A DNA stretch of 64,000 nucleotides from Leptotrichia wadei (GTDB taxonomy: Bacteria > Fusobacteriota > Fusobacteriia > Fusobacteriales > Leptotrichiaceae), in the NCBI RefSeq assembly GCF_007990545.2, contig NZ_AP019829.2, forward strand, positions 2,046,001-2,110,000. Direction: 5' to 3'. Position 1 is the first letter of the stretch. Every line of letters starts with the position of its first letter. Position numbers and translations under genes: made by a program. Positions 29,172 to 56,104 of this stretch are shown piece by piece. The notes under the pieces are model-generated. The model ran no database searches. It was not told where the DNA came from and was given only the letters and a program-made list of their open reading frames with translations.

Positions 29172-30005
29172 ATGAAAGAACTAGCGATATTAGCGGGAAA
29201 TAACAAAATAATGATTAACGGGATCGAGATTGAAACAAAAGAGTATAAGGGGCAAAGGGTTATAACGGCTTGGGATATAGCAAAATTACATGAAAGAGAA
29301 CCAAGAGAAATCACACAGAACTTTAAATATATAAAAGATAAAATGATTTTAGGGTTAGATTATTTTACAATATCTAGAAATGAAATCTCTAAATCAAAAA
29401 TTATGATCCAGGATTTTATACCAAACAACGTAAAGAAAATACAGTTATTTACCGAAAGGGGATATTTAAAACTAACCAAAACATTTACAGATGAGTTAAG
29501 TTGGAAAATACAAGATATGTTAGTTGAAAGTTACTTTATTGTGGTAACTGGGAAAATACAGCCTAAACAACTAACTAAAATAGAAGTCTTAAAAATGGCA
29601 CTTGAAACAGAACTTGAAAACGAAAGATTGAGAAATGAAAACAAGGCCCAATGTGAAATAATAAAGGGGCTAAACGGAGAACTAGAGCCATATCAGTTAG
29701 AGGACATTATAAACAGAATTATAAGGGCAACTGGTGGAAACTATGGGGCTAAATACAATGAAGTTTATAGAGTGTTTAAAGAACGTTATCACATTGACTT
29801 AAAGACTAGAATGACTAACTACAACAAGACAGTAAGGGCAAAGGACAGATTTAAAAGCGTGCTTAAATATGCACTAGCCAATAACTACGGCAAAGACTTA
29901 TTGAACGTAGTAACAACGTTATTTCCTGAAAGCGTAAGAATTGTAATGGACGGAATCAATCAAAATACAGGGCTAGGAAAAGATGAACCATTGTTATTGG
30001 ATTGA
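29172..30005 (+). CDS. ORF6N-domain antirepressor-like protein
   Basis: The 277-residue protein has an N-terminal ORF6N/KilA-N-type domain at about 10-105 (INGIEIETKEYKGQRVITAWDIAKLHEREPREITQNFKYIKDKM...RGYLKLTKTFTDELSWKIQDMLVESYF). A helical linker comes next, at about 130-170. The C-terminal domain (about 175-277) has IRATGGNYGAKYNEVYRVFKERYHIDLKTRM. This is the layout of phage antirepressors, which inactivate the lysogeny repressor by unknown or protein-protein means. Its position right after the Cro-like genes fits that role. DNA binding is also possible for the N-terminal domain. Confidence 0.78.
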   Translation: MKELAILAGNNKIMINGIEIETKEYKGQRVITAWDIAKLHEREPREITQNFKYIKDKMILGLDYFTISRNEISKSKIMIQDFIPNNVKKIQLFTERGYLKLTKTFTDELSWKIQDMLVESYFIVVTGKIQPKQLTKIEVLKMALETELENERLRNENKAQCEIIKGLNGELEPYQLEDIINRIIRATGGNYGAKYNEVYRVFKERYHIDLKTRMTNYNKTVRAKDRFKSVLKYALANNYGKDLLNVVTTLFPESVRIVMDGINQNTGLGKDEPLLLD

Positions 30006-30111
30006 TCCGAAAATGGAAAGTTACGGTGTCGGAATGATACAGGAAATGAAGCCATTTTTGGCTTGAGTGGGCCTGCTATACACAGGTAATGGACAATTAC
30101 AGTCAAATAAA

Positions 30112-30139
30112 TTTTTGTGAAGTTTGTAGTATAATTTAT
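30112..30139 (+). repeat. Left arm of a 28-bp inverted repeat around the AbrB-like gene
   Basis: It matches the reverse complement of 30459-30486 at 26 of 28 positions. It contains TTGTAGTATAAT, a -10-like motif also found at 30436-30446. The pair encloses the small AbrB-like gene. Confidence 0.7.
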
Positions 30140-30159
30140 AAAAAAATTTAAATTATAAT

Positions 30160-30208
30160 TTGACAATTAAGACCTTACATAGTATAATTATAACGTAAGG
30201 ACTTAACA
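30160..30208 (+). promoter_or_regulatory. Consensus promoter with palindromic operator
   Basis: TTGACA (30160-30165), 17 bases, TATAAT (30183-30188) is a perfect sigma-70-type promoter. CCTTAC (30173-30178) and GTAAGG (30195-30200) form an inverted repeat spanning the -10 box, a natural site for autoregulation by the AbrB-like product that starts at 30224. Confidence 0.7.
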
Positions 30209-30223
30209 GGAAAGGAAATAATT

Positions 30224-30397
30224 ATGAAAACGGTAAGAAATGCGAAAGTTATTTTTAGCAAAATGGGAAATGGCAAAGGTGTAAGGCTGAACCTATCCGT
30301 ACCGCTGTTAAAATCGTTAGGGATTGATGAAAATAATCGAGATGTAACGGTTGAATATGATGACGAAACAAAAACAGTTATCATAAAAAAATCATAA
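30224..30397 (+). CDS. AbrB/SpoVT/MazE-like small DNA-binding protein
   Basis: This 57-residue protein, MKTVRNAKVIFSKMGNGKG and onward to KTVIIKKS, has the swapped-hairpin AbrB-like look: a beta strand, GKGVRLNLSVPLLKSLGI, then a DVTVEYDDETKTVIIKK strand pair. AAAGGAAAT precedes the ATG. The family covers transition-state regulators and antitoxins, but no toxin gene is adjacent, so a regulator is more likely. It has its own consensus promoter and palindromic operator, and 28-bp inverted repeats lie on both sides. It would bind DNA as a dimer and probably represses itself. Confidence 0.7.
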   Translation: MKTVRNAKVIFSKMGNGKGVRLNLSVPLLKSLGIDENNRDVTVEYDDETKTVIIKKS

Positions 30398-30719
30398 AAA
30401 AAACGTCCTTTATATCCTTACGAACACAAAGAACGTTGTAGTATAAACTACGTCGCAAATAGATTATACTACAAACTTCGCAAAAATGCAAAAAGAGTTT
30501 TGTAGTATTTTTTTATACCTAAATTTTAGAATAAGCAATTATAACACATATCAAAAAACAAATAAATAGGCATATTCAATATACTTCAGGCAATAAGAAA
30601 ATACACTAATATTTGATTGTAGGTTAAGCGATGGGCTTAATAATTTTAAGATACAACGTGAACGGTGCTACGTAATGCTAGAACGGTTAAATTTAAATAT
30701 TGAAATGGAGTGGTGGAAA
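30398..30719. other. Spacer with the right inverted-repeat arm; no gene
   Basis: It holds TTGTAGTATAA (30436-30446) facing TTATACTACAA (30464-30474), then another partial copy TTTTGTAGTAT near 30496-30506. The remainder is AT-rich with no ORF that I would call. Confidence 0.5.
30459..30486 (-). repeat. Right arm of the 28-bp inverted repeat
   Basis: It is the reverse complement of 30112-30139 except for two T/C changes. Read on the minus strand it carries a TATAAT box, so it may be a duplicated promoter facing left. Confidence 0.7.
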
Positions 30720-30836
30720 ATGAAACACAAATTTGAAGCATTGGAAATGGTAAACAAAAATAGCGAAAAGGCTAGAGAAAAAGAGGCTAAGAAAATCATT
30801 AACAGGCTAAAAAGAATGATTAAAGGCATTAATTAA
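30720..30836 (+). CDS. Very small basic protein, unknown
   Basis: This 38-codon ORF (MKHKFEALEMVNKNSEKARE...) sits behind TGGAGTGG with good spacing, in a run of small element genes. The product would be a single Lys-rich helix. I do not recognise it. Confidence 0.5.
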   Translation: MKHKFEALEMVNKNSEKAREKEAKKIINRLKRMIKGIN

Positions 30837-30901
30837 GTTGATCCGAAGTTTTTGGGCGGATTTAATAAGCAAAATAAATTAAGATTAGGAGAGTGTTAGA
30901 G

Positions 30902-31237
30902 ATGAAAATGAATGAAAGAAAAGAATTTTTTGAAGATGTTGTAATGGAAGTTACAGATGAAATATTAGAAAGTGGAACACACGGAGAAAGTGAAAGCCGT
31001 TTACTAAAAAAAGATGAAAAGATTAAAGATAAATTGGCTGAATTATTTACCTATGTAAAAATAGCAATAAACGAAATGAGAGATGAAACAAGCCGGAAAA
31101 GTGAAAAAGAAATATATGAAAAATACAGAAAAAATATTGAGAAAATGTATGTTGATGAAGTTTTGTGTAACAGTGTTATAGCTGTTGATATACTGGAAAA
31201 AGCAGAAAAAATAACAAAAAAGGCATTTAATAAATAG
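30902..31237 (+). CDS. Hypothetical element protein (111 residues)
   Basis: I do not recognise this gene. The product is acidic at the N-terminus (NERKEFFEDVVMEVTDEILESGTHGESESRLLKKDEKIKD), entirely helical by appearance, with no membrane segment or Cys. The ATG at 30902 has TTAGGAGAG about 8-10 bases upstream. The frame is open from a GTG at 30893 but that sits directly on the ribosome-binding site. It is followed 12 bases later by another small gene in the same run. A DNA-mimic or regulatory role is possible from the charge, but that is a guess. Confidence 0.7.
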   Translation: MKMNERKEFFEDVVMEVTDEILESGTHGESESRLLKKDEKIKDKLAELFTYVKIAINEMRDETSRKSEKEIYEKYRKNIEKMYVDEVLCNSVIAVDILEKAEKITKKAFNK

Positions 31238-31249
31238 GAGTGATAGGGA

Positions 31250-31471
31250 ATGGAAGCAAAAGCGGAAGGAATGGAAGAAAGTATAATAGAATGGGCAAGT
31301 TTTGAATTTGAAGTAGAGAACAAAGAAAAATTGGACATCATTTTTAATGAACTAAAAAGCAATAAAAAGGCAAGTGATTTATTGGTACATTTGATTAATG
31401 GCGTGCAAGATACGTTCTTTGAACTAGGGAAACAAGTGGCTAAAATAGAAAATATGAAAATGAGGGGATAA
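31250..31471 (+). CDS. Hypothetical element protein (73 residues)
   Basis: Unrecognised small protein in the same transcript, with TAGGAGTGATAGGGA before the ATG. It has a helical, charged sequence (MEAKAEGMEESIIEWASFEFEVENKEKLDIIFNELK is the N-terminal half in outline). No membrane segment is evident. It lies between two other small genes, and its stop is 3 bases before a candidate ORF that would need an ATA start. Confidence 0.65.
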   Translation: MEAKAEGMEESIIEWASFEFEVENKEKLDIIFNELKSNKKASDLLVHLINGVQDTFFELGKQVAKIENMKMRG

Positions 31472-31473
31472 AA

Positions 31474-31590
31474 ATAGAGTTATTAGAAATACTAGAAGCA
31501 GAACTATTGGAAATACCTGAAACAGAATTAATAGAACTAGAAAATATAGAAATAGGAGTGAATGAAAATGAAAGCGATCCAGAAAAATAA
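31474..31590 (+). CDS. Candidate micro-ORF with a non-standard ATA start
   Basis: From ATA at 31474 the frame reads 38 residues beginning xELLEILEAELLEIPETE with no stop. AGGGG lies 6 bases upstream at ideal distance. The peptide is a very acidic Leu/Glu repeat and overlaps the start of the Rha-like gene by 23 bases. Either initiation uses ATA, or a former ATG has mutated, or it is not translated. Confidence 0.3.
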   Translation: MELLEILEAELLEIPETELIELENIEIGVNENESDPEK

Positions 31591-32476
31591 AACGATAACA
31601 AGCCTAGAATTATTAAAGAAAATCAATGAGTTAAGGGAAAAGGAATATTTAGAAAAGGCAAAGGCTGGAACATTAACTGAAGCTGAAAGAAAAAAAGGGA
31701 AAGCAGTTAAATTAAAACATAAAAGTTTTTTAAATGTGATAAGAGATGAATTTGAAAACGAAATCACTGGGCAAAATATTTTGCTTAGTGAAAACTTAGA
31801 AAGTAATAATGAAAAAACAGGTCTCCAAAATATTTTGGAGACCTCACAGCAAAAATTATTATCAGTAAATAAAAAAATCACTAACGTTAAAATTTACGTG
31901 AGTAAATACAAAGATAAAAGCGGAAAAGAAAATGAAATGTTTGTATTGGCACTTAATCAAGCCAAACAAGTGCTAATGAGGGAAAGCAAATATGTGAGAA
32001 AAGCCGTAATTGGATATATAGACTACCTAGAGAACCAAAACAGACAATTAGAGGAACTTGCAAGGCTTCAGGCAAGGGAATTGGCTAAAGCGACTAGGAA
32101 CATTGAAACGTTGAATATAAAGGCCCTTTTATATTACGGCAAGGTAAGCAAACCTAAACAAAAGTTTCACTATATCCATTATACAAATTTAGCCAGAGAT
32201 ATAGCAGGAATACCGAAAGGGCTTAAAAGAGATGAATTGACACAAGGGCAACTAGGAATATTACAGCAAGTTGAATTAATAATGAGCGCTGTTATAAACG
32301 AATGTATAAACGAACAAATACCATTTACACTTATATATCAGGAAGTTAGAGAACGTACCGAAATCAAAGCCAGAGTGCTGTTAAAGGCATTGCAAAAGAT
32401 TGAAAGTGTAGACAATGGGCCTGTATGGAGTTTGGAATATTCAGAAAATAAGGGGGGAAATAGTTATGAACAGTAA
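31568..32476 (+). CDS. Rha-like phage regulatory protein
   Basis: This 302-residue protein contains a segment at about 104-155 (KIYVSKYKDKSGKENEMFVLALNQAKQVLMRESKYVRKAVIGYIDYLE) with the layout of the Rha domain found in lambdoid and other phages, where the family interferes with host or phage gene control. The C-terminal half is helical and unassigned. The ATG at 31568 has AGGAG 9 bases upstream. An in-frame ATG at 31562 is too close to it. Two perfect palindromes centred on CAAAATATTTTG lie inside the coding sequence (31771-31784, 31820-31843), which is unusual. Confidence 0.65.
   Translation: MKAIQKNKTITSLELLKKINELREKEYLEKAKAGTLTEAERKKGKAVKLKHKSFLNVIRDEFENEITGQNILLSENLESNNEKTGLQNILETSQQKLLSVNKKITNVKIYVSKYKDKSGKENEMFVLALNQAKQVLMRESKYVRKAVIGYIDYLENQNRQLEELARLQARELAKATRNIETLNIKALLYYGKVSKPKQKFHYIHYTNLARDIAGIPKGLKRDELTQGQLGILQQVELIMSAVINECINEQIPFTLIYQEVRERTEIKARVLLKALQKIESVDNGPVWSLEYSENKGGNSYEQ
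31771..31784. repeat. 14-bp perfect palindrome GCAAAATATTTTGC
   Basis: It lies within the Rha-like coding sequence and shares the core CAAAATATTTTG with the larger palindrome 36 bases on and with the palindrome at 47101-47118. Confidence 0.6.
31820..31843. repeat. 24-bp perfect palindrome in the Rha-like gene
   Basis: Arms GGTCTCCAAAAT and ATTTTGGAGACC meet without a loop. This could be an operator, a strong RNA hairpin or a protein-binding site inside the gene. Confidence 0.65.
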
Positions 32477-32618
32477 TGAAAGAGCGAAAGTTATAATTGA
32501 AGGATTTAAAAAATTAACTTTGGAACAAATGGAACAAATGCTAATCAAATTAGGAATACCAACAGATAGGAAAATAGGGAGTGATGAAAATGGTGGAAAA
32601 GAATATGCAAAGCGTTAA
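32466..32618 (+). CDS. Small helical element protein (50 residues)
   Basis: MNSNERAKVIIEGFKKLTLE... behind an AAGGGGGGAAA ribosome-binding site. The ATG at 32466 is chosen because the longer frame from 32415 overlaps the Rha-like gene without a binding site. The product is unrecognised. It overlaps the next gene by about 29 bases. Confidence 0.55.
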   Translation: MNSNERAKVIIEGFKKLTLEQMEQMLIKLGIPTDRKIGSDENGGKEYAKR

Positions 32619-32790
32619 AAGAAGTGTTAAAAGAATAATGGATCATAAAAATTACAACGAGGATATACAAGCCGTATTAGATAAACTTAACGAGGAAATA
32701 GACGATTATAGGCTATATGAACGGCATTTAAGAAGTGTTTACGAACTAATGGAACTAGGTATCAGAATAACAGTGGCGGCATATAATTAA
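32590..32790 (+). CDS. Small helical element protein (66 residues)
   Basis: The ATG at 32590 follows AGGGAG by 8 bases. The frame is open a little further upstream (32581) with worse spacing. The protein is charged and helical (DIQAVLDKLNEEIDDYRLYERHLRSVYELMELGIRITVAAYN at the C-terminal end in outline) and resembles small phage proteins of unknown role. No motif allows a function. It is part of the compact run of overlapping genes between the Rha-like regulator and Rep. Confidence 0.6.
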   Translation: MVEKNMQSVKRSVKRIMDHKNYNEDIQAVLDKLNEEIDDYRLYERHLRSVYELMELGIRITVAAYN

Positions 32791-32812
32791 AGCAGGATCG
32801 GAGAAATAAAAA

Positions 32813-32995
32813 ATGATAGAATTTGAAATATTAAAAGAAGTTACATTGGCAATTAACCAGGATAGAGAAAAGAAAAAGGCAGAAAAGATTAAAGAATGGA
32901 AAGCACGGGCTAATAATGTGTCAGAGTATATATGCAGTCTGCCTATATCACACAGCCAAAGAAATCAATTAGTGGATAAAATACCGATTTATTAG
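32813..32995 (+). CDS. Small basic element protein (60 residues)
   Basis: MIEFEILKEVTLAINQDRE... is Lys/Glu-rich and helical. The ATG follows a GGATCGGAGAAA stretch. Unrecognised. It belongs to the run of tiny genes before Rep. Confidence 0.55.
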   Translation: MIEFEILKEVTLAINQDREKKKAEKIKEWKARANNVSEYICSLPISHSQRNQLVDKIPIY

Positions 32996-33003
32996 ATGTT
33001 GCA

Positions 33004-33102
33004 TTGGACTGGAAAGCATTAGAAGCGGTAATAAACGAAAGTAATGCAATTATGAAAATATTTGATGAGGACAACGAAGACAATGGAGAAAAATTATCAT
33101 AG
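33004..33102 (+). CDS. Doubtful micro-ORF (32 residues)
   Basis: A TTG-start frame reads MDWKALEAVINESNAIMKIF... to a TAG. It begins 9 bases after the previous stop and has no obvious ribosome-binding site. It may be translated by reinitiation or be chance. Confidence 0.25.
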   Translation: MDWKALEAVINESNAIMKIFDEDNEDNGEKLS

Positions 33103-33122
33103 TATAATGGGGGTGAATAAAG

Positions 33123-33275
33123 GTGAAAGAAGTACATTGTAAGCACTGCGGAGCATTTTTATTTGGAATTGAAAGCGATTGTAAATATTATGTTACAAAG
33201 TGTAAAAAATGCGGTGTAATAAACCGTGGAAGCACTTCGCAGGTATTTAAGCCAAAGAAAAAGAATGAAAAATAA
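33123..33275 (+). CDS. Com-like zinc-finger protein
   Basis: A 50-residue protein starting at GTG 33123, with GGGGGTG upstream. Two CxxC pairs are present, CKHC near residues 6-9 and CKKC near 27-30 (VHCKHCGAFLFGIE, KCKKCGVINRG), with a basic tail. This is the pattern of Mu Com-family zinc-ribbon regulators, which act on mRNA translation of a phage DNA-modification gene. No such target gene is visible here, so its role is unknown. Confidence 0.65.
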   Translation: MKEVHCKHCGAFLFGIESDCKYYVTKCKKCGVINRGSTSQVFKPKKKNEK

Positions 33276-33797
33276 AAAAATGGCTTGTTATAACAACGTA
33301 GAGGGGAGTTATAGCAAGCGATTCTAATAAGATTGGTGTGTAATTTTACATATCAATTATACCATATCACAGCAATTAAAACAATAAAAAGCCCCTATTT
33401 TTAAAAATGATAACAAATAAAAAATATTAAATACCATAACAAATTTTATAATTTTTGAATAAAAGGAAGTATATAAAAATGTAAGATTAATAAAATATTA
33501 AATAAAAATATATAAATAGAATTGGGTAAAATTTTTTTGTTTTCTTTATATAGTTATAATGGGATTGAATTTTACATTTTTAATCATTTTTCATTCAAAG
33601 ATATAGCCTATATAGCATAAATAAAGGCTTTGAATATGAAATAAACTATATAATTCTAAGGAAAAGGCTAATAAAAAGATGATAATGTTGATGTTTTATT
33701 GTTGAAAAAAATAAGAGATAATTTATTCAGGAAAATGATTGGGAGAATGCACGACAAATTTAACATTTTGATAAAGATTGGGTAGGAAGTGAAAAGA
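33276..33797. other. Non-coding region upstream of rep, candidate rolling-circle origin
   Basis: About 520 bases with no ORF. It starts with a strong hairpin (33283-33319) whose 13-base loop contains AACGTAGAGGGGA. The rest is AT-rich and includes small inverted repeats such as TATAGCC/TATATAGC near 33602-33617. In Rep_1-type plasmids the double-strand origin usually lies upstream of or within rep, so this is the natural place for it. Confidence 0.45.
33283..33319. repeat. Hairpin that may be the Rep nicking site
   Basis: Arms GCTTGTTATAAC (33283-33294) and GTTATAGCAAGC (33308-33319) pair at 11 of 12 positions, leaving a 13-base single-strand loop, the shape expected of an origin nicked by an HUH protein. 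No known nick sequence is matched. Confidence 0.45.
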
Positions 33798-34550
33798 ATG
33801 GAAAAAAAGGGGAATTATCCTAAGCGTTACAGATACACAGAAGCGGAAACAGATAGGATAATAGAGATATTAGAAATCATAGAAGAATACAGAAAAACAA
33901 ATGAAGTTGATGAAATAATGGAATGTATAAACAATGAACTTTTATACGGTTCAGGGGAAATAAATTATGTTACGAGATGTAAACGGCAAACGTGTCCATT
34001 ATGCAGGGAAAACAGAAAATATAAGACATATTTAAAATTAAAAGAAAAGGTAGCCAAACAAAATGGAATCCGCTATATATTGATGACATTTAACGGCAGG
34101 GAAATAGGAGATTTAACAAAACTAAGTGATGAAGTTGGGGAAAATAATAGCATAGTGGCACGGATTGTGAGAAAAAAGAGCATACAAGCGATAATGTTGG
34201 GGTATATAAAGATAGTTGAAATATCGTACAACAAATATTCAAAGCGATTATTGCCACATGTACATTTATTGTTAGCAGTTAAAGAGGACTTTAAAGAACA
34301 TTGGATCAGAAAAAAAGAGATAGACAAACTAGAAAAGACTTGGAAAAAATGGAAAAAGGAAACCATAACAAACGCTATTGATGTAAAAATAGTGAAAGAT
34401 ACTGAAAAAGATATTGATACAGTATTAAAGTACATAACGATAGTAAACAAAAAGCGTATAATGAATCTAAATGATATGGAAATAAGGGCCTTTTTTGAAA
34501 TGATAAACGAAAGAAAAAGGCTTTTTACAACTTCAGGGATATTCAAATAA
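33798..34550 (+). CDS. Rolling-circle replication initiator (Rep_1, pC194/pUB110 type)
   Basis: Rep nicks one strand at the origin and starts rolling-circle replication. The 250-residue protein shows the Rep_1 order: a Cys-rich start (Cys 61, 66 and 69 in VTRCKRQTCPLCRENR), LMTFNG near 96-101, the HUH motif LLPHVHLLLAV (His 154 and 156), then the nucleophile motif VLKYITIV with Tyr near 212. ATG 33798 is preferred. An in-frame GTG at 33789 sits directly against the AGGAA ribosome-binding site. It is followed by the integrase gene. The pairing of Rep with a tyrosine integrase implies that the element replicates as a circle after excision. Confidence 0.85.
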   Translation: MEKKGNYPKRYRYTEAETDRIIEILEIIEEYRKTNEVDEIMECINNELLYGSGEINYVTRCKRQTCPLCRENRKYKTYLKLKEKVAKQNGIRYILMTFNGREIGDLTKLSDEVGENNSIVARIVRKKSIQAIMLGYIKIVEISYNKYSKRLLPHVHLLLAVKEDFKEHWIRKKEIDKLEKTWKKWKKETITNAIDVKIVKDTEKDIDTVLKYITIVNKKRIMNLNDMEIRAFFEMINERKRLFTTSGIFK

Positions 34551-34666
34551 AAATAAACATAAGATATTACAAGTGATAAAAAATATATTGATTTATTAAA
34601 AGAATGATATTAAAATACAAAGGCAAGTAGTGCCTAATTAGTTAGATTTTTGGATTGGTGGGAAAT

Positions 34667-35737
34667 ATGAAAAGAAAAAAGAAAGCAAATAGGCAAGGGA
34701 GTGTAACAAAGACAAAGAAAAACAAGCCGTATTGGGTAAGGGTTACCGATCCAGCCACAGGGAAACGAAAATCGCTTGGAATGTATGCGACAAGGACAGA
34801 GGCACAGGAAATATTAAATAATTATTTGGTAAATCCTTATGAGATAGACAACAGCAAGATTATATTTAGCGAACTGTATAAACTGTTTATCAGCAACCAA
34901 AGGGAAATGGTAAAAAAAGCAACCCTTGACAGTTATAAGAACAGCTACAAAAGATGTGAGCCGTTACATAGCCTAGTATTCAGGGAAATAAAAGGCCCGC
35001 AAATGCAACAGGCTATAAACAACTTGAATACAAGTTCAGCGACAAAGCAAATAACGAAGAACTTTTTAACAACGTTATTTAACTATGGAATGGAACTTGA
35101 AATAATAACCGTAAATAGAGCCAAGTACATCAAAATACCTAAAGAATCAGTACAAAAGGAAAAAAATATATTTAGCAGTTATGAAATACAGAAACTATGG
35201 AATAATATTAGCACACAATGGGTTGACTATATTCTAATTATGATTTACACAGGAATGAGGATTGGGGAACTTGCTGGGCTAAAAAAAGAAAACGTTGACC
35301 TATTGCAAGGCTTCATAAATGGCGGGAACAAGACAGAGAAAGGAAAACACCGACAAATACCGATACACAAGGATATTTTCCAATTAATTAAAGGCTTGTA
35401 TGAGAAAAGCCCAACAGATTATTTGCTATACAACCAAAATTGGGTTTTTAAGAAAAAGGAAAAGGAAAATAAGCCGTTACGGATTAATTTTTTCCGTGAA
35501 CATTTTTACAAAACATTGGAATCTCTAGGAATGAACCACAAGCCACACGATTGCCGAAAGACCCTGAGCACTCTAATGAGCCGACAGCAATTAACAACAA
35601 CAGCCATAACGAATATATTAGGACACGAAAACATTGAAACCACGAACAAGTTTTATATTAAGACAGATAAGGAAAACTTAAAAGCTGAAATGAACAATAT
35701 AAAATTTTATTCGGATGAAAGCAATATGACAAATTAA
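34667..35737 (+). CDS. Tyrosine integrase of the element
   Basis: A site-specific recombinase of 356 residues that would integrate and excise the element. An N-terminal arm-binding domain (about 10-56, RQGSVTKTKKNKPYWVRV...SLGMYATRTEAQ) is followed by a core-binding SAM-like domain (about 65-155) and the catalytic domain. Active-site residues are in TGMRIGEL (Arg 198), GGNKTEKGKH (Lys 222), HDCRKT (His 294, Arg 297), LGHENIETTNKFY (His 320, Tyr 330). The ATG at 34667 follows GGTGGG. The right tandem GGTAACCAACG repeat starts 13 bases after its stop, and attR 139 bases after. Confidence 0.93.
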   Translation: MKRKKKANRQGSVTKTKKNKPYWVRVTDPATGKRKSLGMYATRTEAQEILNNYLVNPYEIDNSKIIFSELYKLFISNQREMVKKATLDSYKNSYKRCEPLHSLVFREIKGPQMQQAINNLNTSSATKQITKNFLTTLFNYGMELEIITVNRAKYIKIPKESVQKEKNIFSSYEIQKLWNNISTQWVDYILIMIYTGMRIGELAGLKKENVDLLQGFINGGNKTEKGKHRQIPIHKDIFQLIKGLYEKSPTDYLLYNQNWVFKKKEKENKPLRINFFREHFYKTLESLGMNHKPHDCRKTLSTLMSRQQLTTTAITNILGHENIETTNKFYIKTDKENLKAEMNNIKFYSDESNMTN

Positions 35738-53098: not shown

Positions 53099-54364
53099 TT
53101 AAATAAATTCAACAAATACATTATTTGCTAGCAACATTCCTTTTTTTGTTAAACGAATTCTTGTTTCATAAAAATTTTTTGCTAAGTTTTTATCAAAACA
53201 TTCATTTTTTTCAAATTCTTTATTTTTTTTATTAATAAAATTATCTTTTTCTATAATAAATTTTTCAAGTAACCCATTTTCTATAAGTTTCTCAATTTTC
53301 TCATCTTCAAAATACTCAATTCCTTCTTGAATGAGCCGAAGTCCCAACATTTTTTTTAACTTCTCACTTTCAACTTCATCCACAATCTCAATCGTATTTT
53401 CATCAATCGGCAAATTTTTTTCATCAATCAAATTATAGTACTTTTCAAAAGTCCGTATATTACTATAGCGATTGTTATCAAAATAACTAGCTGCACTCAT
53501 TCCAACACCAACAAACTTCTGATTTTGCCAATATTTTAAATTATGTCTTCCAGCATTTTTCTGCAATTTTTTTAAATCTTCAAAATTTGTCATTTCATAA
53601 ATTTCGACATCTTTGTCATCAATTCTTGCAAAATTAGAGATTTCATACTGACAATATCCATTTTTCTCAAAAAAATCAATAATTTTTTCATACATTAAAG
53701 CTTCTAAATCCTGATCAATCTCAGATAAAATACCCTTTTGCAATTTACTCCAAAAGACGGTCCCTTCTTCCCAGATAAGCGAATAAATTGACACATTTTC
53801 AGGCTTTAATTCCTGTAAAATATTAAGATCCCTTTGCAAATCCTCAATACTTTGATTAGGAATCCCAAACATCAAATCTACTGTAATATTTAAAAACCCA
53901 GCTTTTCTTGCCATTTTATAAATATTTACTGCATCTTTAGAACTGTGCTGCCTTCCAATAAATTTTAAAACATGATCCTGAAAACTCTGAATCCCAATAC
54001 TTAACCTATTTATCCCAATTTTTCGAAATTTTTTCAGCTTTTCAAAAGTCATATCCGTTGGATTTAATTCTAGTGTAATTTCAGCATTTTCAGACCAATC
54101 AAGTTCATTCAATATTTCATTTATCATTTCAGTAGGTAATAGCGAAGGCGTTCCTCCGCCAAAATAAATTGTATCATATTTAATTTTTGGATACATTCTA
54201 ATCTCTTTAATCAAATAATCCGTATATTTTCTATATTCCTTTTCCATTCTTATAAATGTGCAAAAGTCACAATATTCACATTTTTTACTACAAAATGGAA
54301 TATGAATATATATTGCATCAACATTTTTTCCTTTTGATGCTTTAATATTTTTTGTTTCAATCAT
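53099..54364 (-). CDS. hemW: HemW-like radical SAM protein (coproporphyrinogen III oxidase-related)
   Basis: The 421-residue protein has the radical-SAM cluster motif FCSKKCEYCDFC at about 25-36, the YFGGGTPSLLP segment near 68-78, and FGIPNQSIEDLQRDL near 165-180, then a C-terminal HemN-like domain (about 335-415). The cluster CxxxCxYC fits HemW, a heme chaperone, rather than a true HemN oxidase, and no other heme-synthesis genes are in view. Start ATG at 54364. The upstream gap contains a candidate structured RNA on the opposite strand. Confidence 0.9.
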   Translation of the reverse strand: MIETKNIKASKGKNVDAIYIHIPFCSKKCEYCDFCTFIRMEKEYRKYTDYLIKEIRMYPKIKYDTIYFGGGTPSLLPTEMINEILNELDWSENAEITLELNPTDMTFEKLKKFRKIGINRLSIGIQSFQDHVLKFIGRQHSSKDAVNIYKMARKAGFLNITVDLMFGIPNQSIEDLQRDLNILQELKPENVSIYSLIWEEGTVFWSKLQKGILSEIDQDLEALMYEKIIDFFEKNGYCQYEISNFARIDDKDVEIYEMTNFEDLKKLQKNAGRHNLKYWQNQKFVGVGMSAASYFDNNRYSNIRTFEKYYNLIDEKNLPIDENTIEIVDEVESEKLKKMLGLRLIQEGIEYFEDEKIEKLIENGLLEKFIIEKDNFINKKNKEFEKNECFDKNLAKNFYETRIRLTKKGMLLANNVFVEFI

Positions 54365-54490
54365 TATTTTTTACCTTTTTTTAAATTGCTCACTATATTT
54401 TACCACATAAAAGATGTGATTTCAAACTTTTTATTGTACTTAATTATACAATACACTCCTAAAATTTTTCCAACTTTTTTAAAAGAATAT

Positions 54491-54519
54491 TTGACATTTT
54501 TTCATATAACAGTTATAAT
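54491..54519 (+). promoter_or_regulatory. Consensus promoter of the candidate structured RNA
   Basis: TTGACA (54491-54496), exactly 17 bases, TATAAT (54514-54519). It matches the sigma-70 consensus at every position and points away from hemW. No protein gene follows. Confidence 0.8.
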
Positions 54520-54525
54520 ATTTAA

Positions 54526-54771
54526 GAAGCAAAAGTACAAATCAAATAAATATTGAATATATAATAAATTTCTGGTCTATACGCCACTAACATCGAATTT
54601 TTGGGCTTTACTCTTTTTTTATGGGGTTATCCCTTTGTAAATTGTCTCAGGAAAATCACGACTACTTCAAGTTTTGTACGGATTCTGTACGATTTATAAA
54701 TATGACTACCACCTGTAACATTTTGCAGGCAACCAAAAATTAAGTTAGAACGGTAGATCGGATTTTTTTTA
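54526..54771 (+). ncRNA. Candidate structured non-coding RNA, about 245 nt
   Basis: The segment between hemW and tgt is richer in G and C than the spacers around it and holds no ORF. It follows a perfect promoter. Possible local stems are GGGGUUAUCCC (54623-54633), UUGUAC/GUACGA (54674-54692), and CCUGUAA/UUGCAGG (54712-54729). Bases 54571-54579 can pair with 54755-54763 (nine pairs, two G-U) to close the whole RNA, followed by T8. The closing-stem layout recalls 6S RNA, but I cannot match the conserved bubble, so the class is left open. It is not tmRNA, SRP or RNase P RNA by visible motifs. Confidence 0.6.
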
Positions 54772-54867
54772 TTTAAAATGTTAAAGTTATTGCGAGCGAA
54801 ATATTGGTTATGCCTTCTACTCTTTCAAATTATTTCATAAAAATCTCTTTATTCCATATAAAATTTT

Positions 54868-54900
54868 AAAAAAATTGCAAGGTTATTATTCCCTGCATTT
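54868..54900 (-). terminator. Bidirectional terminator after tgt
   Basis: TGCAAGG (54876-54882) and CCCTGCA (54891-54897) arms have a T/A tract on both sides (T7 on the plus strand, T7 on the minus strand). It ends tgt and could also stop transcription from the candidate RNA on the other strand. Confidence 0.75.
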
Positions 54901-54907
54901 TTTTATT

Positions 54908-56104
<1,197 letters not shown>

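What the first reader, a model, noticed from the sequence alone, without database searches (positions are those of the whole stretch)
54491..54771. Unannotated structured RNA behind a perfect promoter between hemW and tgt
The promoter is exact consensus with a 17-base spacer, the transcript region contains several stems, the two ends can pair, and a T8 tract follows. There is no ORF. The closing-stem layout resembles 6S RNA but the match is not certain, so it may be a lineage-specific RNA.
Basis: partly seen in the sequence, partly recalled or inferred. Interest (0 to 1): 0.62.

Follow-up and report, generated by a model that had tools for sequence, protein, structure and literature searches.

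The report
Leptotrichia 6S RNA gene, moved from aspS
The structured RNA between hemW and tgt is the genome's 6S RNA, a well-known RNA decoy of RNA polymerase; it is ordinary in kind, but most of its relatives in this bacterial order are missed by the standard 6S model, and in Leptotrichia the gene sits in a new place behind a perfect promoter.

Summary
In detail: an exact TTGACA-17-TATAAT promoter (54491-54519), a stable fold whose two ends pair, a T8 tract (54763-54770) and no ORF. The RNA is 6S (SsrS). Rfam RF00013 matches 54566-54768 from end to end, 51.9 bits against a cut-off of 46.4; no other family matches. It is the only match in the genome, a Leptotrichia. A covariance model from 25 relatives finds one strong homolog in 94 of 96 genomes of the order, 77 of 77 good-quality ones, whereas Rfam passes its cut-off in 20 of 96. 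Covariation over 70 sequences is strong, and a Fusobacteriaceae-only alignment gives the 6S layout by itself. In 41 of 70 loci the gene lies just behind aspS, where Bacillus subtilis keeps 6S-1 (PMC11077062). In the Leptotrichia clade it has left aspS and has a perfect or near-perfect promoter and a leader of variable length. Most likely mechanism (inferred): decoy of the housekeeping RNA polymerase holoenzyme, released by product-RNA synthesis. New member of a known kind; low interest apart from the order-wide annotation gap.

The parts
54491..54519 (+). Promoter TTGACA-17-TATAAT, exact consensus
   Evidence: same kind of site (12/12 or 11/12, spacer 17) in 18 of 18 loci of the Leptotrichia clade g1, g3, g6, g8
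54526..54565 (+). Predicted transcribed leader, not conserved; the distance from -10 to the core varies from 23 to 72 bases in the clade; presumably trimmed (inference)
54566..54768 (+). 6S RNA, full-length match to RF00013
   Evidence: 51.9 bits, cut-off 46.4
54571..54583 (+). Closing stem, 5' strand (pairs with 54751-54762)
   Evidence: 97.2% of cells paired, 10 of 12 pairs with changes on both sides
54596..54604 (+). Inner helix next to the bubble, 5' strand (pairs with 54733-54741)
   Evidence: 8 of its 9 pairs counted: 94.4% of cells paired, 6 of 8 pairs with changes on both sides
54605..54621 (+). 5' strand of the central bubble; likely template of the product RNA (inferred)
   Evidence: 54605-54612 invariant in 19 of 19 near relatives
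54623..54710 (+). Apical arm
54712..54729 (+). Small hairpin in the 3' strand of the bubble (54712-54716 with 54725-54729)
   Evidence: 83.9% of cells paired (helix 8); not in the Fusobacteriaceae-only consensus
54733..54741 (+). Inner helix, 3' strand
54751..54762 (+). Closing stem, 3' strand
54763..54770 (+). T8 tract directly behind the closing stem, likely 3' end
   Evidence: no separate plus-strand terminator hairpin found

Best explanation
This is the single 6S RNA gene (ssrS) of a Leptotrichia genome. Shown by sequence: own promoter, 6S fold, covarying stems, one copy in nearly every genome of the order. Inferred from E. coli and B. subtilis 6S RNA: RNA polymerase with the housekeeping sigma factor makes a precursor of about 245 nt (about 54526-54770); the unconserved leader is trimmed to give about 200 nt; the RNA accumulates in slow growth, its central bubble mimics an open promoter and occupies the holoenzyme; when nucleotides return, the polymerase copies a short product RNA from the 5' strand of the bubble (about 54605-54613) into the inner helix (54596-54604), which opens that helix and frees the enzyme.
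For: RF00013 above its cut-off over the full model, the only family in the stretch; single copy; homologs in 94 of 96 genomes of the order; strong covariation and an unbiased Fusobacteriaceae-only fold with the same layout; position behind aspS in 41 of 70 loci, as for 6S-1 in B. subtilis (PMC11077062 passages); promoter in 18 of 18 loci of the clade; invariant bubble strand.
Against: The Rfam score is only 5.5 bits over the cut-off (E. coli ssrS scores 139.8). R1 scores E. coli 6S at only 17.2 bits, best in its 1.2 kb but no better than whole-genome noise of about 20 bits. Transcription, polymerase binding and product RNA were not tested. The bubble sequence differs between clades, so the product-RNA start is not fixed.
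Confidence: 0.96

Rival explanations
1. A lineage-specific structured RNA of Leptotrichia that only resembles 6S in its closing stem.
For: The Rfam score is modest (51.9 against 46.4), and many homologs in the order get no Rfam match.
Against: Full-length match with the only family hit; homologs in 94 of 96 genomes; inner helix, bubble and apical arm as in 6S also in Fusobacteriaceae; place beside aspS as for Bacillus 6S-1 (PMC11077062).
Confidence: 0.03
2. A 6S look-alike that binds core polymerase, like Ms1 RNA of actinobacteria.
For: Ms1 is described as structurally related to 6S (abstract of PMC9130861 in the listing).
Against: Only 6S matches in Rfam at E 1; the Ms1 model itself was not compared apart from that scan.
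Confidence: 0.005
3. A cis-regulatory leader or riboswitch of a neighbouring gene.
For: It lies in an intergenic stretch behind a promoter.
Against: Both neighbours are on the minus strand, promoter and RNA on the plus strand; no riboswitch family matches; neighbours change between relatives while the RNA stays.
Confidence: 0.005

Closest known systems
6S / SsrS RNA, Rfam RF00013 (E. coli ssrS, B. subtilis bsrA)
   Same: Full-length model match; closing stem, inner helix, central bubble, apical arm; about 200 nt; own promoter; ancestral place beside aspS as for B. subtilis 6S-1 (PMC11077062 passages).
   Different: Low score against RF00013; A+T-rich sequence; in the Leptotrichia clade not beside aspS, with a perfect or near-perfect promoter and a longer, variable leader.
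Ms1 RNA of actinobacteria
   Same: 6S-like general layout (abstract of PMC9130861, listing).
   Different: No match in the Rfam scan, which gives 6S alone.

Membership tests
6S RNA (RF00013) | Score at or above the Rfam gathering cut-off over the full model | tested here: met
   51.9 against 46.4 bits, model 1-187 of 187
6S RNA (RF00013) | Closing stem, inner helix, central bubble and long apical arm, supported by covariation | tested here: met
   Fusobacteriaceae-only fold
6S RNA (RF00013) | Conserved single-stranded bubble strand usable as product-RNA template | tested here: inconclusive
   54605-54612 invariant in 19 of 19 near relatives, but the sequence differs between clades and no start site could be fixed
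6S RNA (RF00013) | Own strong transcription unit | tested here: met
   exact promoter, kept in the clade; sequence evidence only
6S RNA (RF00013) | Binding to the sigma70 holoenzyme and template-directed product RNA | not testable with these tools
   needs biochemistry
6S RNA (RF00013) | Accumulation in stationary phase | not testable with these tools
   no transcript data for Leptotrichia at hand
Ms1 RNA | Match to an Rfam family other than 6S | tested here: not met
   only RF00013 at E 1 in 54300-55000
cis-regulatory leader | Same strand as, and upstream of, the regulated gene | tested here: not met
   hemW and tgt are on the minus strand

The most novel reading that the evidence does not exclude
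Fusobacteriales carry a divergent branch of 6S RNA that the Rfam model misses in about four of five genomes, ancestrally placed behind aspS as in Bacillus; in the Leptotrichia clade the gene moved away and now has a perfect or near-perfect consensus promoter and a long leader that must be trimmed, so its control by growth phase may have been rewired.
Probability: 0.4. Interest if true: 0.4.

Novelty: new member of a known kind. Interest (0 to 1): 0.25.

Why it matters
It settles an unannotated RNA of an oral bacterium as 6S, and shows that 6S is near-universal in Fusobacteriales although the standard model passes its cut-off in only 20 of 96 genomes. The shared place behind aspS in Bacillus and in much of this order bears on how old that gene order is. 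A better seed alignment would repair annotation in an order that includes Fusobacterium.

Tried and rejected
A lineage-specific RNA, an Ms1-like RNA and a cis-acting leader were considered and rejected (see rivals). A second promoter close to the core (TATAAT at 54560-54565) was considered: the best such site is TACAAA-18-TATAAT, 9/12; sites of 9/12 or better occur by chance at this rate (13 found, 11.7 expected in 2 kb, both strands), and no site at that place is kept in the relatives. A separate plus-strand terminator hairpin was not found. The exact product-RNA start was not fixed.

Papers: eight searches of the held open-access library. No paper holds both '6S RNA' and 'Leptotrichia'; nine hold '6S RNA' and 'Fusobacteri'. 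Of these nine I saw passages of four, none about a fusobacterial 6S; the other five only as search listings. The F. nucleatum RNA landscape paper (Nat. Microbiol. 2021, doi 10.1038/s41564-021-00927-7) is not held, so it may already name 6S in Fusobacterium. PMC11005410 (F. nucleatum fine-mapping, passages only) has no '6S RNA' in its main text. Of PMC8414754, PMC11077062 and PMC3871023 I saw passages.

Full report
What is there. The stretch 54491-54771 lies between hemW (53099-54364, minus) and tgt (54908-56089, minus); both names are confirmed by NCBIfam (TIGR00539, 250.9 bits; TIGR00430, 558.7 bits). An exact TTGACA-17-TATAAT lies at 54491-54519 on the plus strand. Exact sites with 16-18 spacing are rare by chance: 2 in the window against 0.10 expected, 36 in the 2.34-Mb genome against 6 for the pattern read backwards. 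No ORF of 60 aa or more overlaps the RNA. The RNA 54566-54771 folds at -53.7 kcal/mol, z -4.56, none of 200 shuffles as good.

What it is. Rfam 15 gives one match in the whole window: RF00013, 6S RNA, 54566-54768, 51.9 bits (cut-off 46.4), model positions 1-187 of 187. With permissive filters it is still the only family at E 1 or better in 54300-55000. The genome holds one such match. Two genomes of the window's genus (g1) have contigs of the same length as named contigs that carry a 6S pattern: G070 with Leptotrichia hongkongensis (2,261,073 bases) and G072 with Leptotrichia sp. oral taxon 879 (208,106 bases). So the window is from Leptotrichia.

Relatives. With RF00013, 25 of 96 genomes of the order match at E 0.1 and 20 of 96 pass the cut-off (strict filters). 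I aligned the 25 matches; RNAalifold gives 49 pairs, 25 of them with compensatory changes. A model built from them (R1) finds a homolog in 94 of 96 genomes, and in 77 of 77 of those at least 90% complete and at most 5% contaminated; the two misses, G066 and G056, are 86% and 62% complete. Best hits run from 78 to 224 bits; the only secondary hits are 19.8 and 20.1 bits (E 0.28 and 0.37). Of 20 loci, 19 of them from genomes without an Rfam match over strict filters or from other genera, rescanned with permissive Rfam filters, 3 gave a 6S match, all under the cut-off, and 17 gave none at E 10. So the published model misses most of the order.

Structure test. Of the 94 hits I held 70 for the alignment; all 70 match R1 again. 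On 69 distinct rows the R1 structure is formed in 94.2% of 3291 cells (shuffled mean 77.3), with 593 double-change cells (shuffled mean 182; 0 of 500 shuffles reach it), and slides of 1-3 columns give at most 116. This alignment was fitted to the model and leans towards it; two checks lean less. First, the helix next to the bubble (54596-54604 with 54733-54741), which matches the Rfam 6S structure but is not part of R1, is formed in 94.4% of cells for the 8 pairs counted, 6 of 8 with double changes. Second, a fresh MAFFT alignment of 20 Fusobacteriaceae sequences alone folds into closing stem, inner helix, open central bubble and apical arm: 57 pairs, 27 with compensatory changes. Results against: helix 2 and the small hairpin (helix 8) are formed in only 83.0% and 83.9% of cells, and the hairpin is absent from the Fusobacteriaceae consensus.

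Gene order. In 41 of 70 loci the gene directly upstream on the same strand belongs to the aspS cluster (representative L022: aspartate--tRNA ligase); the argS cluster (34 members, representative L056) supplies the downstream gene in many (single-linkage BLASTP clusters, one representative named each). PMC11077062 (passages) states that aspS and yrvM flank bsrA (6S-1) in B. subtilis; a table in PMC3871023 (passage) lists aspS and yrvM beside BsrA in B. licheniformis. In the Leptotrichia clade (g1, g3, g6, g8; 18 loci) none is directly behind aspS; in 11 of 13 g1 loci the upstream gene belongs to a cluster with a cyclic-nucleotide-binding domain (representative L004, PF00027). The window differs again, with hemW upstream.

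Promoter. In those 18 loci the best site is 12/12 in 15 and 11/12 in 3, always with a 17-base spacer; the distance from -10 to the core varies from 23 to 72 bases. In 34 of 39 loci of family f2 a site of 10/12 or better lies 7-17 bases before the core, most often TTGAAA-17-TATAAT; one has 9/12 and four (g18, g21) have no convincing site. In g9 (4 loci) no convincing site was found and the RNA starts 5-6 bases behind the aspS frame, so there it may be cut from the aspS transcript (inference). Inference for the Leptotrichia clade: the precursor carries a leader of about 15-65 nt that is trimmed.

Mechanism. From the family (recalled knowledge of E. coli and B. subtilis 6S): decoy of the housekeeping holoenzyme, released by product-RNA synthesis. 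Shown here: fold, open bubble, a bubble strand 54605-54612 invariant in 19 of 19 near relatives, promoter, T tract. Not shown: transcription, binding, product RNA. E. coli 6S is the best R1 hit in its own 1.2 kb (17.2 bits), a weak link, since whole-genome noise reaches 20 bits.

Verdict. The finding is real and is 6S RNA: ordinary in kind, a new member. The extra value is the order-wide annotation gap and the changed location in Leptotrichia. I could not read the 2021 F. nucleatum RNA paper, which may already report 6S there.

Noticed in passing
window 30160-30397: A second exact consensus promoter (30160-30188) with an inverted repeat (ACCTTAC ... GTAAGG) over and behind the -10 box, in front of a 57-aa ORF (30224-30397) that looks like a small AbrB/MazE-type regulator by eye; Pfam gives no match.
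   Followed up: partly
window 29172-35737: ORF6N-domain protein (29172-30005) and a phage-type integrase (34655-35737), with small ORFs between: probably a mobile element or prophage remnant.
   Followed up: no
own genome G000:C1:567463-583486, minus strand: Five near-identical exact consensus promoters with a 16-base spacer (TTGACATTTTTGTAAAATATGTTATAAT and variants) within 16 kb, suggesting a repeated unit.
   Followed up: no
L021, L022, L024, L025 (genus g9): 6S starts 5-6 bases behind the aspS frame without a convincing promoter, as if made by processing of the aspS transcript.
   Followed up: partly
L102 3106-3148; L103 172-218: Contigs labelled Planctomycetota and Deltaproteobacteria match the fusobacterial 6S pattern; chance or mislabelled bins, not examined.
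   Followed up: no
window 54876-54897 and 54443-54472, minus strand: Terminator-like hairpin just behind tgt and a 10/12 promoter-like site in front of hemW, so 6S looks like an isolated unit between two minus-strand genes; both scans are near chance level.
   Followed up: no
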